This document shows positions 5,103-22,936 of a stretch of DNA of 64,000 nucleotides, piece after piece. The position numbers and the translations under genes are program-made. The notes under the pieces were generated by a model that searched no databases, was not told the DNA's origin, and was given only the letters and a program-made list of their open reading frames with translations. This stretch comes from Pontiella desulfatans (lineage in GTDB: Bacteria > Verrucomicrobiota > Kiritimatiellia > Kiritimatiellales > Pontiellaceae): assembly GCF_900890425.1 (NCBI RefSeq), contig NZ_CAAHFG010000003.1, positions 1,178,001 through 1,242,000 of the forward strand. Direction: 5' to 3'. Position 1 is the stretch's first letter; every line of letters starts with the position of its first letter.

Positions 5103-6518
5103 ATGAGGGCATTGCTGTATCGTTTGCTTCCAACTATGAAAACAACATTGAAGGTCTTGGGATCGGTTTTTGCATTGGGGCTGGTCATTCTGCTCGTATT
5201 CCACCTGGTCATGCTCCATGGCCTCACCCGGGCGATGCGCGATGTGGTTTTGCCGCGCATCAAGGAGGAGTCGGGGATCGACGCGAGGGTCGGCCGGTTG
5301 TCCATCAATGTCGCGGGGGGGGAGTTGATTCTCAATGACGTGGAGATCCGCAACCCCGAGGGCTTCCTGCTGGAAAACCTGGCTTCCGCCGAACGGGTTT
5401 TGGTCGAGGTCGATTTCGTTTCCCTCATCAGCAAGAAGCCGATCCATGCCCGGAACGTTGAACTGGACCATGTGTTGGTCAATGTAATCCGCAACAAGGA
5501 TGGCGACATTAACCTGAACAAGCTGCAGGAAGGGCTTCCCATGCCTCCTTCGGGGGAACCGGGGAAGAAACCGGTTCCGGGCGAAGGGGGAACGCCGACG
5601 GAACGTTTGCCGGAGCCTGGCAAACCCGCGCCCGGGCCGGCGGAGTCCAAACCTTTGCCGGAAATGCTGTTCGATGCCATCGTGTGCAAGGCCACGGTGC
5701 GCTACCTCGATTTCAGGTTGAACGAGTTGGATATTGCCCTCGACCTCGATGCCAAAGCGCAAGGATTGTCCACCCTGCAGGATCCCGCCACCCCCTGGGG
5801 CCATGTTTCGATTGCCGGTTCCCTGGGGGATGACCGCACCAGTTTCATCACCGACCTGAAGCTGCGCATTGCCCCCTTGGTTGATTTGGAGAATCCGTCA
5901 TTCGACCTGACCGGCAAGATCATGGAGATCGACCCGCGCATTATGCAGGAAATCTACGACGACATGGGGATCCGCTCCGCGCCGTTCGGCCTGGATCCGC
6001 GGTTCCAGTGCCGCAACGGCTGGTTCGAGGAGTCGTCGATTGGGTTCAACCTGCGGGATATCGAATTGGAGGACAAGCTTTCCAAGCGCCTGGGCGGTAT
6101 GGGAACTATCGGTTCGCTCAAGCTGGTTGTCCCGGTTCAGGGATCGTTGCAGGAACCCACAATGGATTTCGAGCGTGCATTGACTTCGGCCATCGGAGGC
6201 AATGCAATCTCCATCCTGGATGCCTTCCTGAAGGGGGCGGTTTCCACGGAGACCGGCATGCAGGAACCGCCTGAAAAAATGACCGATGCCGTCGTCGAGG
6301 TTCTTGGAGCGCATGTGGAGGAGATCGGCGAGAGCGAGACGGTAAAGAAAGTCCTAAAGGATTTGGCAGACGGCGAACCTTCCGCTACAAACGCGCCTTC
6401 CCCGGTCAGCATCGATACGCTGGTGGATCTCCTCGGTGAAGAGGTGAAGGAAATCGGGGAGGATGAAGAGCTCAAGAACGACCTGAAGCAACTCGGCGGC
6501 TGGCTCTTCGGAAAGTAG
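5103..6518 (+). CDS. AsmA-like membrane-anchored protein
   Basis: This is a 471-residue protein with one N-terminal membrane segment (VFALGLVILLVFHLVMLHGL) followed by a periplasmic part that begins like AsmA-family proteins (SGIDARVGRLSINVAGGELILNDVEIRNPEG). A Pro/Gly/Glu-rich linker (~residues 150-185) separates this from a second beta-rich part. The C-terminus carries two related acidic repeats (VEVLGAHVEEIGESETVKKV and VDLLGEEVKEIGEDEELKND). AsmA-type proteins act at the inner membrane in lipid transport or outer-membrane assembly; that role is inferred by family only. AGGGTGG precedes the start. It is followed after 11 bp by plsY and so may be co-transcribed with lipid genes. Confidence 0.65.
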   Translation: MRALLYRLLPTMKTTLKVLGSVFALGLVILLVFHLVMLHGLTRAMRDVVLPRIKEESGIDARVGRLSINVAGGELILNDVEIRNPEGFLLENLASAERVLVEVDFVSLISKKPIHARNVELDHVLVNVIRNKDGDINLNKLQEGLPMPPSGEPGKKPVPGEGGTPTERLPEPGKPAPGPAESKPLPEMLFDAIVCKATVRYLDFRLNELDIALDLDAKAQGLSTLQDPATPWGHVSIAGSLGDDRTSFITDLKLRIAPLVDLENPSFDLTGKIMEIDPRIMQEIYDDMGIRSAPFGLDPRFQCRNGWFEESSIGFNLRDIELEDKLSKRLGGMGTIGSLKLVVPVQGSLQEPTMDFERALTSAIGGNAISILDAFLKGAVSTETGMQEPPEKMTDAVVEVLGAHVEEIGESETVKKVLKDLADGEPSATNAPSPVSIDTLVDLLGEEVKEIGEDEELKNDLKQLGGWLFGK

Positions 6519-6529
6519 GGGATGTTTAG

Positions 6530-7153
6530 ATGTTGGTATCTGTTTTAGCAGTGGTGGCCTACCTGTTCGGGGCCATTCCTTTTGGCTTGCTGGTGGCCAA
6601 ATCCAGGGGCGTTGATATCCGGTCCAAGGGGAGCGGCAACATTGGCGCCACCAACGTTTTCCGGGTGGTCGGGAAAGGGTGGGGCACGTGTACGTTTGTC
6701 CTCGATGCCCTGAAGGGGTTCCTTCCGGCCTATGCGTTCCCGAAGGCCGGCGCCTGTTTGGTTGAGGGTTTTTCGGCCGAGTGGGGCGTGCTGTTCGGCC
6801 TGCTGGCCATTGTCGGCCACACCTTCCCGATCTATCTCAAATTCAAGGGCGGCAAGGGCGTTGCCACCAGTGCCGGCATGCTGCTGGGCGTTGCTCCCGT
6901 GGCGGTCGGCGTTGGTTTTGTCTGCTGGTTGGTTACGGTGCTGGTTTCGCGCTATGTATCGCTCGGCTCCATCATCGCGTCGTTCGCGGTGGGCATAACG
7001 GTCTGGGTTGATCCCCGCGAAGATAGCATCATCGTCCAGTCGGCATTGTCGTTGATGTCGGTGCTGGTTATTTGGCTGCACCGTGCCAATATCAAGCGCC
7101 TGCTCAACGGAACCGAAAACCGGTTTGGAAAAAAGAAAGAGGCCGCATCATGA
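6530..7153 (+). CDS. plsY: Glycerol-3-phosphate acyltransferase PlsY
   Basis: The 207-residue polytopic membrane protein transfers an acyl group from acyl-phosphate to glycerol-3-phosphate, the first step of phospholipid synthesis. The three family motifs are visible: GSGNIGATNVFR near residue 40, the GGKGVATSAG loop near 105, and a third region after residue 140. AGGGGA precedes the start. The last codon overlaps the start of gpsA (ATGA), so the donor-substrate gene and the acyltransferase are translationally coupled, a common arrangement. Confidence 0.95.
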   Translation: MLVSVLAVVAYLFGAIPFGLLVAKSRGVDIRSKGSGNIGATNVFRVVGKGWGTCTFVLDALKGFLPAYAFPKAGACLVEGFSAEWGVLFGLLAIVGHTFPIYLKFKGGKGVATSAGMLLGVAPVAVGVGFVCWLVTVLVSRYVSLGSIIASFAVGITVWVDPREDSIIVQSALSLMSVLVIWLHRANIKRLLNGTENRFGKKKEAAS

Positions 7154-8139
7154 AGGTAACCGTAATCGGTGACGGAGGCTGGGGGACGGCCTTGGCCATG
7201 GTACTCGACCGCAACGGGCACGAAACCACCGTCTGGGGGCCATTCCCCGACTATCTCGAAGAAATCCGCTCTTCCGGCGAAAACAAAACCTATCTTCCCG
7301 GCGTGGAGGTTCCTGCTTCCTTGAGGTGGACGTCCGACCATGCCGATGCCGTGAAGGATGCCGCGTTGGTGGTGCTGGTGGTGCCCTCGCGTTTCTACAA
7401 ACCCGTCGTCGAAGCCTTCAAGCCCTTCATTCCGGCGGACGCATTGGTGGTCAGCGCCACAAAGGGGTTGGACGAAGAGACGCACGAGCGCATGAGCGAG
7501 ACGGCCGAAAAGATTCTCGGCCGCCCGGTTGCCGTGCTGTCGGGGCCCAGCCACGCCGAAGAGGTCGCCCGCGGCGTCCCCTGCGCCGTGGCCATTGCCG
7601 CGAAGGACCATGCGGTGGCCGAGCAAATCCAAGACCTGTTCGTGAACGATACCTTCCGCGTCTACACCCTCGACGACGTCGTGGGCGTTGAACTCGGCGG
7701 GGCGCTCAAGAACGTCATCGCCGTGGCCGCCGGGATTTCCGACGGCATGGGCTTCGGCGACAACTCGAAGGCGGCGCTCATGACGCGCGGAATCGCCGAG
7801 ATCACCCGCTTGGGCACGGCGCTGGGCGCCAAACCCGAAACCTTCTCCGGGCTCAGCGGCATCGGCGACCTGATGGTCACCTGCATGAGCCGGCACAGCC
7901 GCAACCGCGGCGTTGGCGAGCGGCTCGGCAAAGGCGAAACGCTTGAAGAGATCATGAACAGCATGAAGATGGTCGCCGAAGGCGTATGGAACTGCCAAGC
8001 CGCCAAGGAGCTCGCCGCCGAAAAAGGCGTCTCCGTTCCCATTACCGAACAGGTTAACGCCGTCGTCCACGAAGGCAAGGATCCCCGGCAGGCCGTGCTC
8101 GATCTGATGTCGCGCGCTCCCAAGCCGGAAGGCATTTAA
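7150..8139 (+). CDS. gpsA: Glycerol-3-phosphate dehydrogenase [NAD(P)+]
   Basis: The 329-residue cytoplasmic enzyme reduces dihydroxyacetone phosphate to sn-glycerol-3-phosphate, the substrate of PlsY just upstream. It starts with a Rossmann fold (VTVIGDGGWGTALA), and carries SGPSHAEEVARG and the catalytic-domain segment GVELGGALKNVIAVAAGISDGMGFGDNSKAAL, followed by SGIGDLMVTC. The ATG at 7150 overlaps the plsY stop by four bases. Its own stop overlaps the stop of the convergent beta-helix gene (8136-8139), so there is no room for a separate terminator. Confidence 0.96.
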   Translation: MKVTVIGDGGWGTALAMVLDRNGHETTVWGPFPDYLEEIRSSGENKTYLPGVEVPASLRWTSDHADAVKDAALVVLVVPSRFYKPVVEAFKPFIPADALVVSATKGLDEETHERMSETAEKILGRPVAVLSGPSHAEEVARGVPCAVAIAAKDHAVAEQIQDLFVNDTFRVYTLDDVVGVELGGALKNVIAVAAGISDGMGFGDNSKAALMTRGIAEITRLGTALGAKPETFSGLSGIGDLMVTCMSRHSRNRGVGERLGKGETLEEIMNSMKMVAEGVWNCQAAKELAAEKGVSVPITEQVNAVVHEGKDPRQAVLDLMSRAPKPEGI

Positions 8140-17030: not shown

Positions 17031-17123
17031 GCCCGCCGCACCGGATCGTGATTCGCCGCGAACCTCCTTCGCCAAGGCTCCGGCGGTCAAGTATCGCGCA
17101 GGGAAACGCAAGGACGGGGCGGG
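17031..17123. repeat. 93-bp repeat, copy 1
   Basis: The stretch from GCCCGCCGCACCGGATCG to GGACGGGGCGGG recurs at 18415-18507 with a handful of substitutions. It contains no start codon in good context. Its boundary lies 14 bp after the mnmE stop. Confidence 0.8.
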
Positions 17124-17192
17124 AATAAATTCAAGTGCGGCGGGAACGGAAAGGCCACGCCGCTTTTAAAACCGGTGCGGACGGTTTTGGTT

Positions 17193-17573
17193 GGCCACAC
17201 AATTGAGATGCAATTGCGCGCATAGCACAAAGACCACCGCCAGGCTCTTCATCCCTATATGAACTTTACTTGAATGGTCTCACCACAGAGCACACGAAGG
17301 CACAGAGGAGCGGGAATGTTCAATTGCTCTGTGTCTCGGTGACCTCTGTGGTAAAAAAAATCTGTTTAATTGGGTATGATTCACACCAAAGCGGCTTCGC
17401 AGTAGAAAAAATGACAGAACAATTGGGACAGAATGATTTCCTTTATGCCGTAACCATGAATCATTTTGTCCTAATTATTCTGTCAAAAAAATTGCACGAT
17501 TTGCTTAACCGCGAATGAACACGAATTCCCTCTGCGCCCGCACCGGAAATAGTCCTGTCGTTAATCGTCTTGT
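17193..17573. repeat. Composite dispersed repeat, copy 3, with 74-nt hairpin
   Basis: It starts with GGCCACACAATTGAGATGCA. Bases 17281-17352 form an imperfect hairpin whose arms run ACCACAGAG...GGCACAGAG and CTCTGTG...CTCTGTGGT. Bases 17301-17573 recur at 18026-18305. Inside, 17412-17438 pairs with 17459-17485 (27-nt arms, 24 Watson-Crick pairs, two G-U, one mismatch) over a 20-nt loop. No gene is seen; the right part is AT-rich and unlike its surroundings. Confidence 0.85.
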
Positions 17574-17689
17574 GAAAAAAATCGGGTTGGAGGGCGAGGT
17601 TCCATCCGAGCCGCCCGTGGAGGGGCGGACGCTGTCCGCCCAGGCGCACGGCGTGCGCCCCTCCAGCAAGGCATCGCAGGCGATGGGAT
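17574..17689. other. Small hairpin-rich spacer between repeat units
   Basis: The phrase 'ggagggcgaggttccatccg' (17588) recurs at 18391. GGAGGGG-type and CCCCTCC-type segments at its ends (17630 and 17655 areas) can pair. No gene is seen. Confidence 0.4.
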
Positions 17690-18305
17690 GGCCACGCAAT
17701 TGAGAAGCAATTGCGCGCATAGAACAACGACCACAGCCAGGCTCTTTATCCCTATGAACTTAACTTGAATGGTCTCACCACAGAGGACCCAGCGCGGGCA
17801 CTCCGCAACCGAATTTAAACACTAAGACAGAAGTGCCTAGCGCAGCTCAGCCGCAACCAAAGATATCGCAAAATAATGGACGGCAAAATGATCTGAAATG
17901 CTTCAAGTAGATTATTTTGCCACTCATTATTTTGCAAAAAAACTCTGACGTAGTTGCTATTATCCAAAGGCTTGCGGAGAAAATCTTGCCGGAAAAACAA
18001 GTTTTGGGGAGATAGTAGTACGAAGCACAGAGGAACGGGAATGTTCAATTGCTCTGTGTCTCGGTGACCTCTGTGGTAAAAAAAACAAACCTGTTTAATT
18101 GGGTATGATTCACACCAAAGCGGCTTCGCAGTAGAAAAAATGACAGAACAATTGGGACAGAATGATTTCCTTTATGCCGTAACCATGAATCATTTTGTCC
18201 TAATTATTCTGTCAAAAAAATTGCACGATTTGCTTAACCGCGAATGAACACGAATTTCCCCTGCGTCCGCACCGGAAATAGTCCTGTTATAAATCGTCCT
18301 GTAAA
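17690..18305. repeat. Composite dispersed repeat, copy 4, with long hairpins
   Basis: The unit opens with GGCCACGCAATTGAGAAGCA and carries the 'tagcgcagctcagccgcaacc' phrase. At 17882-17921 GGCAAAATGATCT pairs with AGATTATTTTGCC. Bases 18026-18305 repeat 17301-17573, including the 74-nt hairpin (arms 18141-18167 and 18188-18214). Compared with copy 3 it contains ~230 bp extra sequence between the left hairpin arm and the shared right part. No gene is seen. Confidence 0.8.
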
Positions 18306-18414
18306 ATCTCTCCGTCCGCACCGAGAATCATTTTGCAAAAATCCTGCCCAGCCCGGCCATGAGCAGGCAAGAAAGCCCGCTCCACATATTGGAGGGCGAG
18401 GTTCCATCCGAGCC

Positions 18415-18507
18415 GCCCGCCGCACCGGATCGTTATTCGCCGCAAACCTCCTTCGCCAAGGCTCCGGCGGTCAAGTATCGCGCTGGGAAACGCAAGGACG
18501 GTGCGGG
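18415..18507. repeat. 93-bp repeat, copy 2
   Basis: This is the second copy of 17031-17123. It is preceded by the 'ggagggcgaggttccatccg' phrase and followed by more hairpin motifs, including GCGCCGAC-GGC-GTCGGCGC at 18569-18587. No gene is seen between 18508 and the IS110-type element. Confidence 0.8.
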
Positions 18508-18752
18508 CGGATTATTTGACAGAATGATTTGGTGGCAGAATAATTTTGCGGCGCAGCCGCCCTGGAGTGCGCCGACGGCGTCGGCGCTTTCCGTTGTGCG
18601 GGCGGTTGAGGAGTCAAAAGACGGCCTGCCATGGGAGTTGAAAGCCGAAATGACGAATTAGGCGGCCTGATAATCATAAAGAGGTTCTTTGAAATAAGCC
18701 TTGGTCGAGCGCAAACTATCCTTGGGTTAAACCACTAACTAAAGGAGCAGTT

Positions 18753-19784
18753 ATGCAAACGACCAAAGCAAATGCACTATACGCAGGTGCCGACCTGCAT
18801 GGAAACAATGTTTTCCTCTCCCTTTGTGATCAGGAGGGGAACACGGTGTTCCGCAAACGCGTGAAAGCGAACCTTGCGGCCGTCAATGCTGCGCTCGACC
18901 CGTTCTGGGATCGGATCGTGGCGCTGGGCGTGGAATCGACCTTTAACTGGTACTGGTTCGTCGATGGACTTCACGAGAAAGACCGTAATGTAAAGCTGGG
19001 CAACCCGGCGAAGATGGAGCAGTACAAGGGGATCAAGATCACTAACGATCTGACGGATGCGGACTGGCTGGCCGAGCAGCTCCGGCTGGGTATCTTTCCG
19101 GAAAGCTACATCTATCCGAAGGAAACACGCCCCGTACGCGATGCATTGCGCAGAAGACAGCTGTTCGTGCGCCGTCGGACACAGGTGCTGCTGAGCTTCG
19201 GCGGCCTGCTCGAACGCTATGGCCTGGATGCTCCGGGTGCGCGCAAGTTGGAACAGTGGACATTAAAAGATATTCAGGCCACCGGACTCGACGAATTCGT
19301 TCAGCTTCAGCTCGAAACCCTGCTTGAAGCCATCCGTGAGTCGGATCGCCTGGCGAAAAAGGTCGAGCAGCAGGTGCTGGCAGTCGCAAAACCGACAAAG
19401 CAATACCGACGAGCGCAGCAGGTTCCGGGAATCGGGGTTGCGCTGGGAATGCTTGTCGCCCTTGAGAGCGGGGATTTCAGCCGCTTCAAAAGCGCGGGCG
19501 ACTACGCCTCCTACTGCCGGGCGGTAAAAAGTGAATGCAGTTCGAACGGAAAAAAGAAGGGTAAAAACAACGCGAAGAACGGCAACCGTTATCTCGCATG
19601 GGCATTCGTTGAGGCCGCAACCTATGCCGCGCGCTTCAACCCGCGCATCCACGCCTGGTACGAACGTAAAAAAAGAACGAGCGGCGTGCCTAAGGCGAAA
19701 AAAGCGCTGGCCTGCAAGTTGGCCAAGGCGATGTGGCATGTAATGAACGGAAAGGATTTTGATGAAAAGCTGATGTTTGGATAA
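18753..19784 (+). CDS. Transposase, IS110 family (DEDD)
   Basis: The 343-residue enzyme has the IS110 layout. An N-terminal RuvC-like domain carries YAGADLHGN (Asp14), VESTFNWYW (Glu61) and LTDADWLA (Asp102/Asp104). A C-terminal Transposase_20 domain carries VPGIGVALGMLVALES and the small-residue stretch CSSNGKKKG (~262-270) that holds the catalytic Ser in this family. IS110 enzymes are known to be guided by a structured RNA from the element's non-coding end. AAGGAG precedes the ATG with six bases spacing. The frame is intact. Confidence 0.92.
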   Translation: MQTTKANALYAGADLHGNNVFLSLCDQEGNTVFRKRVKANLAAVNAALDPFWDRIVALGVESTFNWYWFVDGLHEKDRNVKLGNPAKMEQYKGIKITNDLTDADWLAEQLRLGIFPESYIYPKETRPVRDALRRRQLFVRRRTQVLLSFGGLLERYGLDAPGARKLEQWTLKDIQATGLDEFVQLQLETLLEAIRESDRLAKKVEQQVLAVAKPTKQYRRAQQVPGIGVALGMLVALESGDFSRFKSAGDYASYCRAVKSECSSNGKKKGKNNAKNGNRYLAWAFVEAATYAARFNPRIHAWYERKKRTSGVPKAKKALACKLAKAMWHVMNGKDFDEKLMFG

Positions 19785-19786
19785 AC

Positions 19787-19855
19787 GGGATGCCGCCGGG
19801 AACCGGAAAAGGGTCTGGTAAAACCAACGGACTGATTGGAATCCGGCGGCGTCCC
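19787..19855 (+). ncRNA. Structured element directly after the IS110 transposase
   Basis: GGGATGCCGCCGG (19787-19799) pairs with CCGGCGGCGTCCC (19843-19855), 12 Watson-Crick pairs and one G-U. The loop contains a second hairpin TGGT-AAA-ACCA (19816-19826). It begins two bases after the stop codon and has no T-run, so it could be part of an IS guide RNA or a 3' stabilising hairpin. Confidence 0.5.
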
Positions 19856-19986
19856 AACTCTATCGTTTGAAACGCGGTTGCCCCGTTGCCAGCCCCCAAG
19901 GGTCTGGAAACCCGGAGGACCCGCAGATGCGGGACCGAAGGCAAACCACTTTGACTGAATGGGCGGTGGACGGGTACAGACGGTTT

Positions 19987-20258
19987 TCTGGTTCCGCAAT
20001 AGCGGAATGGGGATGCGGCACAAAGCGCAGGTGGTTGCCTTCGCCGCCGGCATCCGAGATCCAGATGGGTGACTGAACAACCACGTGATGAATCACGCGG
20101 CAAACCACGCGACGAAGACCCTGATGGCAGCAAACGTTCAGCGATGGGGATTAACGCAGAACCGATCAACGAAAAGGGAAATAAGCAGGTCGTTGAGAAA
20201 CGACCATGGAAGGGTATTTTGTGTTTGACCGGAACCTCTAATGGGTGACCCTTTTTCT
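19987..20258 (+). ncRNA. Candidate IS110 guide (bridge/seek) RNA region, copy A
   Basis: Stems visible here: TTCCGC-AATA-GCGGAA (19992-20007); GGATGC with GCATCC (20011-20016 / 20050-20055) around an inner GGTGG/CCGCC; and GGTCGT-TGAGAA-ACGACC (20188-20205). The same stems occur in copy B, some with compensatory changes. The non-coding tail of an IS110/IS1111-type element is where such RNAs are known to be encoded. No transcript evidence is available from sequence alone. Confidence 0.5.
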
Positions 20259-20506
20259 TCTGGTTCCGCAATGGCGGAATGAGGATGCGGCACAAAGTGG
20301 AGGTGGTTGCCTTCGCCGCCGACATCCGAGATCCAGATGGGTGACTGAACAATCACGTGACGAAGACTACTGATGCAGCAAGCGTTCAGCGATGGAAAGA
20401 AATGTTGTAACCGATCAAAAAAAGTAAAACTGGCAGGCCGTTGGAAAACGGCTATGGAAGGGTATTTTTTGTTTGACCGGAACCTCTAATGGGTGACCCT
20501 TTTTCT
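20259..20506 (+). ncRNA. Candidate IS110 guide (bridge/seek) RNA region, copy B
   Basis: This is a diverged tandem copy of 19987-20258, about 24 bases shorter in its middle. Its stems are TTCCGC-AATG-GCGGAA (20264-20279), GGATG with CATCC, and GGCCGT-TGGAAA-ACGGCT (20436-20453). Relative to copy A one stem pair changes from T-A to C-G and another from G-C to G-T. It ends at the integrase remnant. Confidence 0.5.
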
Positions 20507-20731
20507 AAAACCGGGCGTTCTGCCTAACACATCGAGATAGGAATCGAGATAGGCAGAAGACACAGCGTTCAGTTTAAGCCCGTCCAGCCCATAAACGAAC
20601 TCCTGCGCACGTCGCACATGCCACTCAGCATTTCGGCCGGAGACCCCGTATTTGGCGAGCTTCTCGGCATACTTGCCCCAGAACACCTGCTCTTTGCCCG
20701 ACATTTTTCTTTTCACATGCTCTTTAGCCAT
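20507..20731 (-). pseudogene. Integron-type tyrosine recombinase, N-terminal fragment (intI relic)
   Basis: Only ~75 N-terminal residues remain. WHVRRAQEFVYGLDGLKLN and YLDSYLDVLGR look like the SAM-like core-binding domain of integron integrases. The catalytic domain with the R-H-R-Y residues is missing; the frame runs into the right end of the IS110-type element at 20506 and stops at 20486. The gene points away from the attI-like core at 20806 and the cassettes, the normal integron layout, which supports the identification. No remaining part of the gene is visible on the other side of the IS, so the loss is more than a simple insertion. Confidence 0.65.
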
Positions 20732-20793
20732 GCATTCTACCTATCACATAAAAAAAGGCCTGTTAAGGAAATAGATAGGCAGATGCCGTTTCT

Positions 20794-20812
20794 GCCTAAT
20801 CAACTGTTAGGC
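20794..20812 (+). other. attI-like integration core upstream of the first cassette
   Basis: GTTAGGC at 20806-20812 matches the GTTRRRY core. A mirror copy GCCTAA at 20794-20799 gives the inverted pair TGCCTAA / TTAGGCA. It lies 75 bp from the start of the integrase remnant and 14 bp before the first cassette gene. The first cassette's own inverse core (GCCTAAC at 21175) is its exact complement, as expected for a cassette inserted here. Confidence 0.7.
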
Positions 20813-20826
20813 AGGAATAAAAGAAT

Positions 20827-21171
20827 ATGACAGCAACACAATTTCTATTCAGCATAAAAGGCAGAGTCAGCAGGAAACAATATTGGCTATACTTTGTTCT
20901 CCCTATCAGTATCCCTTGGGTTTCACTAAGTACATTTCTTGCAATGAACTATCCGGAGGAATCACTTACCTTCCGTCTATTATGCATGCCCATTATTTAT
21001 TGGATTGCCATTTGTGCCATGGGAAAAAGATGGCATGACAGAAATAAGTCAGCTTGGTGGATTTTAATCCTTCTGATTCCAATCATTGGAGGTTTGTGGT
21101 TCTTGGTTGAGGGAGGATTCTTAAAAGGAACTGACGGTTCAAATCGGTTTGGAGATGATCCAACTCAATAA
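20827..21171 (+). CDS. Cassette 1: DUF805 membrane protein
   Basis: The 114-residue protein has the DUF805 start (FLFSIKGRVSRKQYWLYFV) and about three membrane segments; GKRWHDRNKSAWW is the usual loop and RFGDDP the usual tail motif. The function of the family is unknown. The gene occupies an integron cassette (20807-21255) between the attI-like core and attC1. Its base composition is clearly lower in G+C than the chromosomal genes on either side. Confidence 0.85.
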   Translation: MTATQFLFSIKGRVSRKQYWLYFVLPISIPWVSLSTFLAMNYPEESLTFRLLCMPIIYWIAICAMGKRWHDRNKSAWWILILLIPIIGGLWFLVEGGFLKGTDGSNRFGDDPTQ

Positions 21172-21174
21172 CTT

Positions 21175-21261
21175 GCCTAACCAGAGCCTTGACCTTACCG
21201 TGAAATCGCCCGTCGATCCGGTCAACGTTTTGCGCACGGCAGGTCAGGCTGAACGTTCGAA
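21175..21261 (+). other. attC1 recombination site (87 bp)
   Basis: R'' GCCTAAC (21175-21181), L'' AGCCTTGACCT (21185-21195), L' AGGTCAGGCT (21241-21250), R' GTTCGAA (21255-21261). L'' and L' pair except for one extra T in L'', the extrahelical base typical of attC. A further stem CCGTG / CACGG lies inside. R'' is complementary to the core at 20806, as required for one circular cassette. Confidence 0.88.
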
Positions 21262-21267
21262 TAAAAA

Positions 21268-21522
21268 ATGATGGATAAAATATACAACATATTATTGGGA
21301 CTATCATCCATCTTCATTTTCTTAACTGTCCGCACCCAAACGCTTACCGAAGGACACTGGAACACAACAAAGAAAATGACCCCTGTTATGCCACTCATGG
21401 CCGTTGGACTTTACCTGTTGATTATGGCCATGGTCTCAAGTGATTTAAAAAGTAGAGGTAAATTAATTGCAGGCATAATCATGACAGCCGTTTCACTTAC
21501 AACTTTCATACTAACAAGATAA
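21268..21522 (+). CDS. Cassette 2: small membrane protein, unknown
   Basis: The 84-residue product has about three hydrophobic segments (YNILLGLSSIFIFL, MPLMAVGLYLLIMAMV, LIAGIIMTAVSLTTFIL). I do not recognise a family. The start lies six bases after the R' core with no Shine-Dalgarno sequence, so translation may be leaderless or coupled. The cassette spans 21256-21609. Confidence 0.65.
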   Translation: MMDKIYNILLGLSSIFIFLTVRTQTLTEGHWNTTKKMTPVMPLMAVGLYLLIMAMVSSDLKSRGKLIAGIIMTAVSLTTFILTR

Positions 21523-21526
21523 AAAA

Positions 21527-21615
21527 TTCGAACCAGAAAGTGGAGCCTACTTGGACAACGCCCGTTGATTCGGTCAAAGTTGGTTTTCCCAAGCGGCTCA
21601 CTTTGAACGTTCGAA
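21527..21615 (+). other. attC2 recombination site (89 bp)
   Basis: R'' TTCGAAC (21527-21533), L'' AAAGTGGAGCC (21537-21547), L' GGCTCACTTT (21595-21604), R' GTTCGAA (21609-21615). L'' has one extra G relative to L', the extrahelical base. The inner stem is CTTGG / CCAAG. R'' complements the leading core of its own cassette at 21255. Confidence 0.88.
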
Positions 21616-21624
21616 TGACTAAAA

Positions 21625-21906
21625 ATGAAACAGATCAAAATCATTTCAGCGCTTTCTCCTCTTCTATGCTTGATCGGTTTCATCGTCGTAGTCCTGATTG
21701 AAAGCCAAAATGTATATTACGAAAATTATGCCGGTGAGATTGGAAAGAATATTTTCATTCCTCTCCTTATCGCATCAACAATCTGGATGATTTATGTGCA
21801 CAGAAAATCCAAATGGCTTTACAGAATTCTATTACCCATTGCTATCGTCATAGGAATCTTGATCGCCTTCGTATCATTCATTATCTGGAGAGTATCAGTA
21901 GGATAA
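21625..21906 (+). CDS. Cassette 3: small membrane protein, unknown
   Basis: The 93-residue product has three likely membrane segments (ISALSPLLCLIGFIVVVLI, NIFIPLLIASTIWMIYV, ILLPIAIVIGILIAFVSFII). No family is recognised. The ATG is nine bases after the R' core and again lacks a Shine-Dalgarno sequence. The cassette spans 21610-21999 and is AT-rich. Confidence 0.65.
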   Translation: MKQIKIISALSPLLCLIGFIVVVLIESQNVYYENYAGEIGKNIFIPLLIASTIWMIYVHRKSKWLYRILLPIAIVIGILIAFVSFIIWRVSVG

Positions 21907-21917
21907 AAAACAAAAAC

Positions 21918-22005
21918 TTCGAACCAGCACATGGACTTTACGGTGAAAACGCCAGTCGATTAAGTTGAAGTCTATGTGCACCGAAAGTCACGTGTAACGT
22001 TGGGA
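21918..22005 (+). other. attC3 recombination site (88 bp)
   Basis: R'' TTCGAAC (21918-21924), L'' CACATGGACTTT (21928-21939), L' AAAGTCACGTG (21984-21994), R' GTTGGGA (21999-22005). L'' carries one extra G and one mismatch against L'. The inner stem is CGGTG / CACCG. A second near-copy of L' (AAGTCTATGTG, 21967-21977) lies within the site. Confidence 0.82.
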
Positions 22006-22016
22006 AAAGGAATGAA

Positions 22017-22538
22017 ATGAAACTATTTTTGACCATAATGGCACTCTTGGTTTCGACCAAAGTATCGAGTTGTCTCTACCCGCATAATGTAACGCTAGAG
22101 AACATTCAAAACCTTCCCATAATCGCATTCTTCGATGAAATTGACGGGGAGGTTTATTGCGACCTGTACCTGCGTAACACTGATAACCTACTGGGTTTGG
22201 ATGTAGTAGAAGTTTCGGTGAGGCGTGAAGCAGATGAAACGGTGTTTTTCTGCGAGCTTCACCCCGAGGAGGACGAATTCTATCGGCTCCATAAATTAAT
22301 CTTCATTATCGATAAGGAAATGATCCGCCACTCATGGATCAGTATAGAGGCAAAAAGTGAAGATCTATCTCCTGAAAATGAAGTCATGCACTCGTGTCGC
22401 TTTACTTACCACGTTCCATTGAATGTTATGTATGAATACTCAAAAAACAACGATGATGATCAGAGATACCCCCTACTAATGAAGCTTAAAGAAAAATCAT
22501 ATATTACTAATAGGAAACAGCTTCCCAACCACCATTAA
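22017..22538 (+). CDS. Cassette 4: secreted protein or lipoprotein, unknown
   Basis: The 173-residue product starts with a signal peptide (LFLTIMALLVSTKVSSC); VSSC could be a weak lipobox. The mature part is beta-rich and acidic, with no recognised family. AAGGA precedes the ATG; an ATG five bases earlier opens only a two-codon frame. The inverse core TCCCAAC (22523-22529), complementary to the leading core GTTGGGA at 21999, lies inside the last codons, so the gene and its attC overlap. No matching L' or R' follows, so the terminal attC is lost or degraded. Confidence 0.65.
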   Translation: MKLFLTIMALLVSTKVSSCLYPHNVTLENIQNLPIIAFFDEIDGEVYCDLYLRNTDNLLGLDVVEVSVRREADETVFFCELHPEEDEFYRLHKLIFIIDKEMIRHSWISIEAKSEDLSPENEVMHSCRFTYHVPLNVMYEYSKNNDDDQRYPLLMKLKEKSYITNRKQLPNHH

Positions 22539-22857
22539 GTCCCTCTGAGTAAAGACAAAAATTCCCCTGTCTCAATCTTCGTGTTTTTCCAACTACCACT
22601 ATCGATTGAACTGTCCAACCTGGTCTCAATGCGTGCCGTTTTTATTTCTACATGGGCGAGTGAAGCAAGGCTCCCTCAAACAACCGAAAAAGGGTCAGGC
22701 CGCCTAAATCGTCATTTTGGGCAAAGGAGTCCTTTGATCTTTGTGTTTGATGAACTAAGGGTCATCCAAGAGGCTCCGAATGGCGTTGGAAAAGGCTGAG
22801 AACACAAGGGTTTGATGCAAAAGAACACGAGCGGGTTTGGGGCGTGCGGTGGTTGCC

Positions 22858-22936
22858 CGTTCGGCGGGGCAGGCGGGCCGCCTGCGGTACGGTTGCGTTT
22901 TTCCGTTCGGCGGGGCAGGCGGGCCGCCTGCGGTAC
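22858..22936. repeat. Two direct copies of a palindromic 33-mer
   Basis: The units 22858-22890 and 22904-22936 match and each is built around the palindrome GCAGGCGGGCCGCCTGC. They are spaced 46 bp start to start. Confidence 0.8.

What the first reader, a model, noticed from the sequence alone, without database searches (positions are those of the whole stretch)
20507..22538. Chromosomal integron remnant with four cassettes
A truncated integrase N-terminus on the minus strand, an attI-like GTTAGGC core, and four small AT-rich genes on the plus strand separated by 87-, 89- and 88-bp sites are seen in sequence. Each cassette's inverse core is the exact complement of its own leading core (GCCTAAC/GTTAGGC, TTCGAAC/GTTCGAA twice, TCCCAAC/GTTGGGA). 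That is the rule for circular integron cassettes and is very unlikely by chance.
Basis: partly seen in the sequence, partly recalled or inferred. Interest (0 to 1): 0.85.

Follow-up and report, generated by a model that had tools for sequence, protein, structure and literature searches.

The report
Severed integron copy with gene cassettes
This stretch is a cut-off copy of a bacterial gene-capture device (an integron) that still has its docking site and four captured genes, one of at least five near-identical docking platforms scattered through the same genome, of which only one still has an intact capture enzyme.

Summary
A covariance model built without any window sequence hits exactly three sites in 64 kb, 21175-21261, 21527-21615 and 21918-22005 (E 3e-26 to 3e-25; next 2.1). 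All four cassettes obey the core rule 7/7. The attI is supported directly: five platform copies (292 bp, 99-100% identical) in this genome are alike up to TCAACTG|TT and then carry five different first cassettes. Corrections: only three attC sites survive, because cassette 4 keeps just its R'' box (TCCCAAC, 22523); and the integrase fragment is not the usual IntI N-terminus but 75 residues of an extra domain, folded like a recombinase core-binding domain, that precedes the normal IntI core. The intact 460-aa IntI lies on another contig. The window copy lost its integrase core at a repeat into which IS110 elements inserted. Beyond the claim: 44 attC sites in 21 clusters genome-wide; a REP-like 23-mer near many arrays (12 of 15 copies, 12/12 in consistent orientation); duplicated intI-attI platforms in two other species and attI sites without integrase in others. 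A known kind of element in an unusually dispersed state.

The parts
18656..18670 (+). left half of the REP-like repeat (AATTAGGCGGCCTGA), 5' edge of the integron unit, split by IS110
   Evidence: sequence; the intact repeat sits at the same place in sister copies L007 and L008
18671..20248 (+). IS110-family element; transposase ORF 18753-19784; 98.7% copy at sister locus L009
   Evidence: PF01548 and PF02371 hits; copy in L009; ends inferred from GGCCTGA/TAATCATA and AATGGGTGA/CCCTTTTT
20249..20496 (+). remnant of the 3' end of a second, diverged IS110 element (80% identical)
   Evidence: BLAST of L010 against L009
20507..20731 (-). truncated intI: first 75 residues of a 460-aa integron integrase; all of it lies in the extra N-terminal core-binding-like domain
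   Evidence: 97-100% identical to residues 1-76 of the intact IntI at C2:975560-976939; fold
20791..20812 (+). attI: TCTGCCTAATCAACTG|TTAGGC, crossover after G20806
   Evidence: five sister copies alike up to this point, then different cassettes; motif found in 16 of 43 genomes of the order, 28 places against 1 for the reversed control
20807..21255 (+). cassette 1; ORF 20827-21171, DUF805 membrane protein
   Evidence: PF05656 E 8e-23; core GTTAGGC and inverse core GCCTAAC
21175..21261 (-). attC 1 (folding strand given)
   Evidence: model R2 88.8 bits, E 2.7e-25
21256..21609 (+). cassette 2; ORF 21268-21522, 84-aa probable membrane protein
   Evidence: core GTTCGAA and inverse core TTCGAAC; no confident family
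21527..21615 (-). attC 2
   Evidence: model R2 91.8 bits, E 3.2e-26
21610..21999 (+). cassette 3; ORF 21625-21906, 93-aa probable membrane protein
   Evidence: core GTTCGAA and inverse core TTCGAAC
21918..22005 (-). attC 3
   Evidence: model R2 91.4 bits, E 4.1e-26
22000..22538 (+). cassette 4, incomplete; ORF 22017-22538, 173 aa with an apparent signal peptide; R'' box TCCCAAC at 22523-22529 pairs 7/7 with its core GTTGGGA, but the rest of its attC is missing
   Evidence: sequence; no attC hit
22687..22709 (-). REP-like repeat in inverted orientation, 3' edge of the integron unit
   Evidence: near attC arrays genome-wide in consistent orientation

Best explanation
The locus is a severed copy of a chromosomal integron. 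It keeps the attI docking site and an array of four small-gene cassettes, but its own integrase gene is cut after 75 codons, at a repeat now occupied by IS110 elements, and its last attC is gone. It belongs to a family of at least five near-identical intI-attI platforms in one genome; only one still encodes a whole IntI (460 aa, two tandem core-binding-like domains plus the catalytic domain). Shown: attI, the three attC sites, the circular-cassette rule, the sister platforms with five different first cassettes, and the truncation at repeat/IS110 sequence. Inferred: the cassettes were inserted at G|TT of attI by IntI from folded bottom-strand attC; cassettes here could still be excised, and new ones inserted, by the intact IntI acting in trans (likelihood about 0.5); a promoter in the kept intI-attI segment drives them. 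How the platform was copied around the genome is not resolved.
For: Independent attC model; covariation; 44 attC sites in 21 clusters in the genome; five platform copies with the exact attI crossover; intact IntI; attC family and attI motif shared across the order; duplicated intI-attI platforms that again end exactly at attI in two other species.
Against: No functional data. The IntI fragment alone hits no family. No sigma-70-like promoter was found on the + strand between 20480 and the first cassette, so the cassette promoter is only assumed. The fourth attC is absent.
Confidence: 0.93

Rival explanations
1. Inert fossil: the integron was duplicated and then broken, and neither attI nor the attC sites have been used since the integrase was lost. 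(A variant of the best explanation that denies its trans-activity step.)
For: Truncated intI, lost fourth attC, IS110 accumulation; about a third of intI genes are pseudogenes, many thought to come from intragenomic duplication (PMC2426708).
Against: An intact IntI of the same kind is in the genome; platform copies are 99-100% identical, so the events look recent; attI and attC sequences are intact.
Confidence: 0.45
2. REP-bracketed mobile unit: the integron unit was spread as a piece of DNA between inverted REP-like repeats (AATTAGGCGGCCTGACCCTTTTT and its inverse), by an IS200-like (REP-associated) or other transposase.
For: 12 of 15 genome copies of the repeat lie within 6.5 kb of an attC (expected 0.5, P 7e-16), all 12 direct at the 5' edge and inverted at the 3' edge; a further copy at C4:463041 abuts half an attC; an IS200-like transposase gene (PF01797) lies just past the array of the intact integron.
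Against: No copy of the repeat was found at the intact platform; left break points in intI differ between copies, which fits secondary insertion or deletion better than unit transposition; the duplicated platforms of G081 and G212 show no such repeat at their left ends; the pattern was noticed after the fact and copies may not be independent.
Confidence: 0.25
3. The cassettes were inserted at a chance secondary (attG-like) site, not at a true attI.
For: IntI can insert cassettes at non-attI genomic sites (Loot et al. 2024, cited in PMC12444791); many attC sites in this genome are single and scattered.
Against: The site lies next to intI, is identical in five platform copies with five different cassettes, and shares a motif with attI sites of long-IntI integrons in other genomes.
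Confidence: 0.03

Closest known systems
Sedentary chromosomal integrons and CALINs (clusters of attC lacking an integrase), as defined by IntegronFinder (PMC9024848)
   Same: attC array, attI crossover, circular-cassette rule, small mostly unknown cassette genes; by the definition this locus is a CALIN
   Different: it keeps attI and the 5' end of intI; the genome holds five sister platforms and 21 attC clusters instead of one large array
Long IntI group ('clade 15', about 120 aa longer than other IntI; PMC2426708)
   Same: the intact IntI here is about 145 aa longer at its N-terminus; full-length relatives lie in Desulfocapsa, Desulfobulbaceae and gammaproteobacterial MAGs
   Different: host is a Pontiella-like (Kiritimatiellales) bacterium; the extension is identified here as a second core-binding-like domain; placement in that clade was not tested
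Degraded Xanthomonas integrons (PMC12444791)
   Same: truncated intI, transposases next to the integron in some strains, arrays kept
   Different: there one ancestral site (next to ilvD) in most strains; here several near-identical platforms in one genome, one still intact

Membership tests
Chromosomal integron | array of attC sites with conserved bottom-strand fold | tested here: met
   three attC sites, E up to 3e-25 with a model lacking window sequences; covariation
Chromosomal integron | attI site with crossover G|TT | tested here: met
   five sister platforms identical up to TCAACTG|TT
Chromosomal integron | leading core of each cassette complementary to its own R'' | tested here: met
   7/7 in four of four cassettes; P 4e-5
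Chromosomal integron | functional intI at the locus | tested here: not met
   only 75 codons remain; an intact copy is on another contig, so this locus is filed as a remnant (CALIN-like), not as a complete integron
CALIN (PMC9024848) | at least two attC sites without an integrase | tested here: met
   three attC sites and no intI core within the locus
Integron integrase (TIGR02249) | intact homologue over the curated cut-off | tested here: met
   408 bits against cut-off 265; IntI4 structure 8e-87
Integron integrase (TIGR02249) | the window fragment itself hits the family | tested here: inconclusive
   no hit: the fragment lies wholly in the N-terminal extension, outside the model; assignment rests on 97-100% identity to the intact gene
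Long IntI group (clade 15 of PMC2426708) | N-terminal extension of about 120 aa | tested here: met
   core starts near residue 146-150 of 460
Long IntI group (clade 15 of PMC2426708) | phylogenetic placement in that clade | not tested
   no tree built with clade 15 sequences
IS110 family | DEDD and Transposase_20 domains | tested here: met
IS110 family | bridge RNA guiding the target | not tested
   only the target sequence CTGA/CCCTTTTT was read from the junctions

The most novel reading that the evidence does not exclude
Satellite integrons: this order of bacteria disperses attI platforms without integrase genes through the genome, and one intact tandem-domain IntI loads and shuffles cassettes at all of them in trans, so the genome runs one distributed multi-site integron instead of a single array.
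Probability: 0.3. Interest if true: 0.72.

Novelty: new member of a known kind. Interest (0 to 1): 0.47.

Why it matters
Integrons are usually described as one platform feeding one array. Here one genome has five near-identical attI platforms, four without an integrase core, each with its own cassettes, and related species repeat the pattern. Standard annotation would call these loci CALINs and miss the attI, because the surviving intI piece lies outside the IntI models tried here. This makes a testable case of whether one integrase can serve many attI sites in trans, and gives a ready marker (TCTGCCTAATNNACTG|TT) for finding attI sites that have lost their integrase.

Tried and rejected
Rfam scan: no match. 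GTTRRRY motif counting: at chance level, uninformative. PDB sequence search with the 76-aa fragment alone: only an E 0.68 hit to an RNA ligase, judged chance. Search for a fourth attC at 22000-22900 without filters: nothing. Promoter scan: no + strand hit upstream of cassette 1; counts as in shuffles. Single-site fold z-scores were weak for two of three attC sites on the folding strand, so the comparative evidence was used instead. Cassette proteins: no PADLOC hit; apart from DUF805 no family above its cut-off, and the weak sub-threshold Pfam/NCBIfam hits were judged chance. Papers linking integrons with Pontiella or Tichowtungia: none in the library. I considered attG insertion and chance repeats and rejected both. 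I looked for attC-like or core sites at the left end of the duplicated platforms of G081 and G212 that could explain copying by IntI itself and saw none.

Full report
Setting. The window is C3:1178001-1242000 of an 8.66-Mb, 6-contig genome. Its relatives are Kiritimatiellales: handle G212, placed in the same genus, has a contig of 3,727,846 bases, the length of NZ_CAAHFH010000001.1 of Pontiella sulfatireligans F21, so the window organism is a Pontiella-like bacterium (inference).

Observation. A covariance model of 10 attC sites, including the three of the window, found 44 sites with E below 1e-3 in the genome. To remove circularity I built a second model from 16 sites of other loci and other species; it hits exactly the three window sites (E 3.2e-26, 4.1e-26, 2.7e-25), the next best match in 64 kb being E 2.1. 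On 46 sites 91.5% of pair cells are standard pairs, against 69% in column shuffles and at most 43% when partners are slid, with 219 compensatory cells against 73. The fold has the attC anatomy: paired R and L boxes, unpaired spacer, an extrahelical base and a variable terminal loop.

Core rule. In the window: GTTAGGC/GCCTAAC, GTTCGAA/TTCGAAC twice, GTTGGGA/TCCCAAC, all 7/7. Random pairing from a pool of the genome's cores gives 4/4 with P 4e-5 (the pool was hand-picked from matching pairs, which does not affect the draw much but should be said). In the other arrays 16 of 22 consecutive pairs are 7/7; at least one failure lies where an intermediate attC was not detected, in L008. Bare cores are at chance frequency.

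The fourth cassette. Its R'' box is at 22523-22529, inside the end of the ORF, but no attC follows: neither the filtered nor the unfiltered scan finds one. The array ends in non-coding sequence and a REP-like repeat at 22687-22709. So the locus has four cassettes but three attC sites.

attI. The same 292-bp segment (intI 5' end, spacer, attI) occurs five times in the genome at 99-100% identity, plus one partial 76% copy. All five are alike up to TCAACTG|TT and then carry unrelated first cassettes. This is direct comparative evidence for the attI crossover point. The pattern TCTGCCTAATNNACTGTT occurs 28 times in 16 of 43 genomes of the order against once for the reversed pattern, and similar sequences precede long-IntI genes in Desulfocapsa MAGs.

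The integrase. One platform (C2:975560-976939) has an intact 460-aa IntI: TIGR02249 408 bits, IntI4 2a3v E 8e-87 over residues 152-458, Phage_integrase and Phage_int_SAM_4 domains. Residues 1-145 are an extension. Five of nine relatives match Phage_int_SAM_4 inside the extension, one at the Pfam cut-off. Its AlphaFold2 model (pLDDT 76) is best matched by the N-terminal domain of IntI4 (Z 10.2, rmsd 3.7, 101 residues) and XerA (Z 9.8), and tyrosine recombinases fill the top 29 rows; Foldseek E-values alone are weak (0.13 at best), so this is fold-level support for a helical domain, not proof. The window fragment is 75 residues of this extra domain, which explains why it hits no IntI model. A group of IntI about 120 aa longer was noted in 2008 (PMC2426708), so a long IntI is not new in itself.

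How the copy was broken. In four platforms intI is cut at four different points, each at or close to ...TGACCCTTTTT. In L007 and L008 the neighbour is the 23-mer AATTAGGCGGCCTGACCCTTTTT. In the window an IS110 element (ORF 18753-19784) sits inside the same repeat, GGCGGCCTGA/CCCTTTTT, next to a remnant of an older IS110. A second intI in the genome, C1:1467543-1468489, is split between two reading frames.

A bracketing repeat. The 23-mer occurs 15 times in the genome with up to 2 mismatches. Twelve copies lie within 6.5 kb of an attC (expected 0.5, P 7e-16; 10 within 5 kb, P 5e-13), and all twelve are direct at the 5' edge and inverted at the 3' edge of the array. One more, at C4:463041, abuts half an attC. 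The pattern was found after the fact and copies may share descent, but it is far beyond chance. Whether the repeat mobilises the units or inserts at their edges is open.

Related genomes. 34 of 40 relatives have matching attC sites; G215 has 76 matches, most in one large array. TIGR02249 is over cut-off in 23 of 43 genomes of the order and in none of 14 controls. G081 has two intI-attI copies 99.86% identical over 1470 bp, and P. sulfatireligans (G212) two copies 99.1% identical over about 1350 bp; both pairs end at or within a few bases of the attI crossover (CACTG|TT) with different cassettes, and their left flanks are unrelated. attI sites with no detectable intI nearby occur in G035, G029, G212 and G215, some followed by attC sites; some of these genomes are draft assemblies. 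More than one intI per genome and intragenomic duplication are known for integrons in general (PMC2426708).

Mechanism. Shown: structure, crossover point, cassette rule, copy number, truncation. Inferred from established integron biology: IntI recombines the folded bottom strand of attC with attI; cassettes are expressed from a platform promoter, which I could not locate. The intact IntI is a plausible trans-acting enzyme for the severed platforms, but nothing here shows that they have been used since truncation.

Verdict. A real integron remnant, correctly recognised from raw sequence. The locus itself is a new member of a known kind. The interesting part is the dispersed set of platforms.

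Noticed in passing
window 18656-18670 and 22687-22709; G000 genome-wide: A REP-like 23-mer lies near many attC arrays of the genome, direct at the 5' side and inverted at the 3' side (12 of 15 copies, 12/12 in orientation).
   Followed up: partly
window 18671-20496: IS110 element inserted into the repeat at CTGA/CCCTTTTT, in tandem with the 3' end of a diverged IS110; the same IS110 sits in the same kind of target at sister locus L009.
   Followed up: partly
L126 6339-7808, L127 (reverse) 6376-7845; L129, L130: In G081 and in P. sulfatireligans a minimal intI-attI segment is duplicated almost identically, ends at the attI crossover, and has unrelated left flanks without visible repeats; the copying mechanism is unknown.
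   Followed up: partly
L138 3537 and 6509 (G215): Two near-identical attI-like sites 3 kb apart within one array, with no integrase found nearby.
   Followed up: no
L035 3418-5461 (C4:999259 region): A diverged attI platform is followed by cassette genes of 379 and 243 aa without any Pfam or PADLOC match.
   Followed up: no
L023 (C1:1467543-1468489): A second intI (55% identical) split between two frames, with its own attC array.
   Followed up: no
window 17041-18655: Non-coding region built of several imperfect repeats shared with the left flanks of L007 and L008.
   Followed up: no
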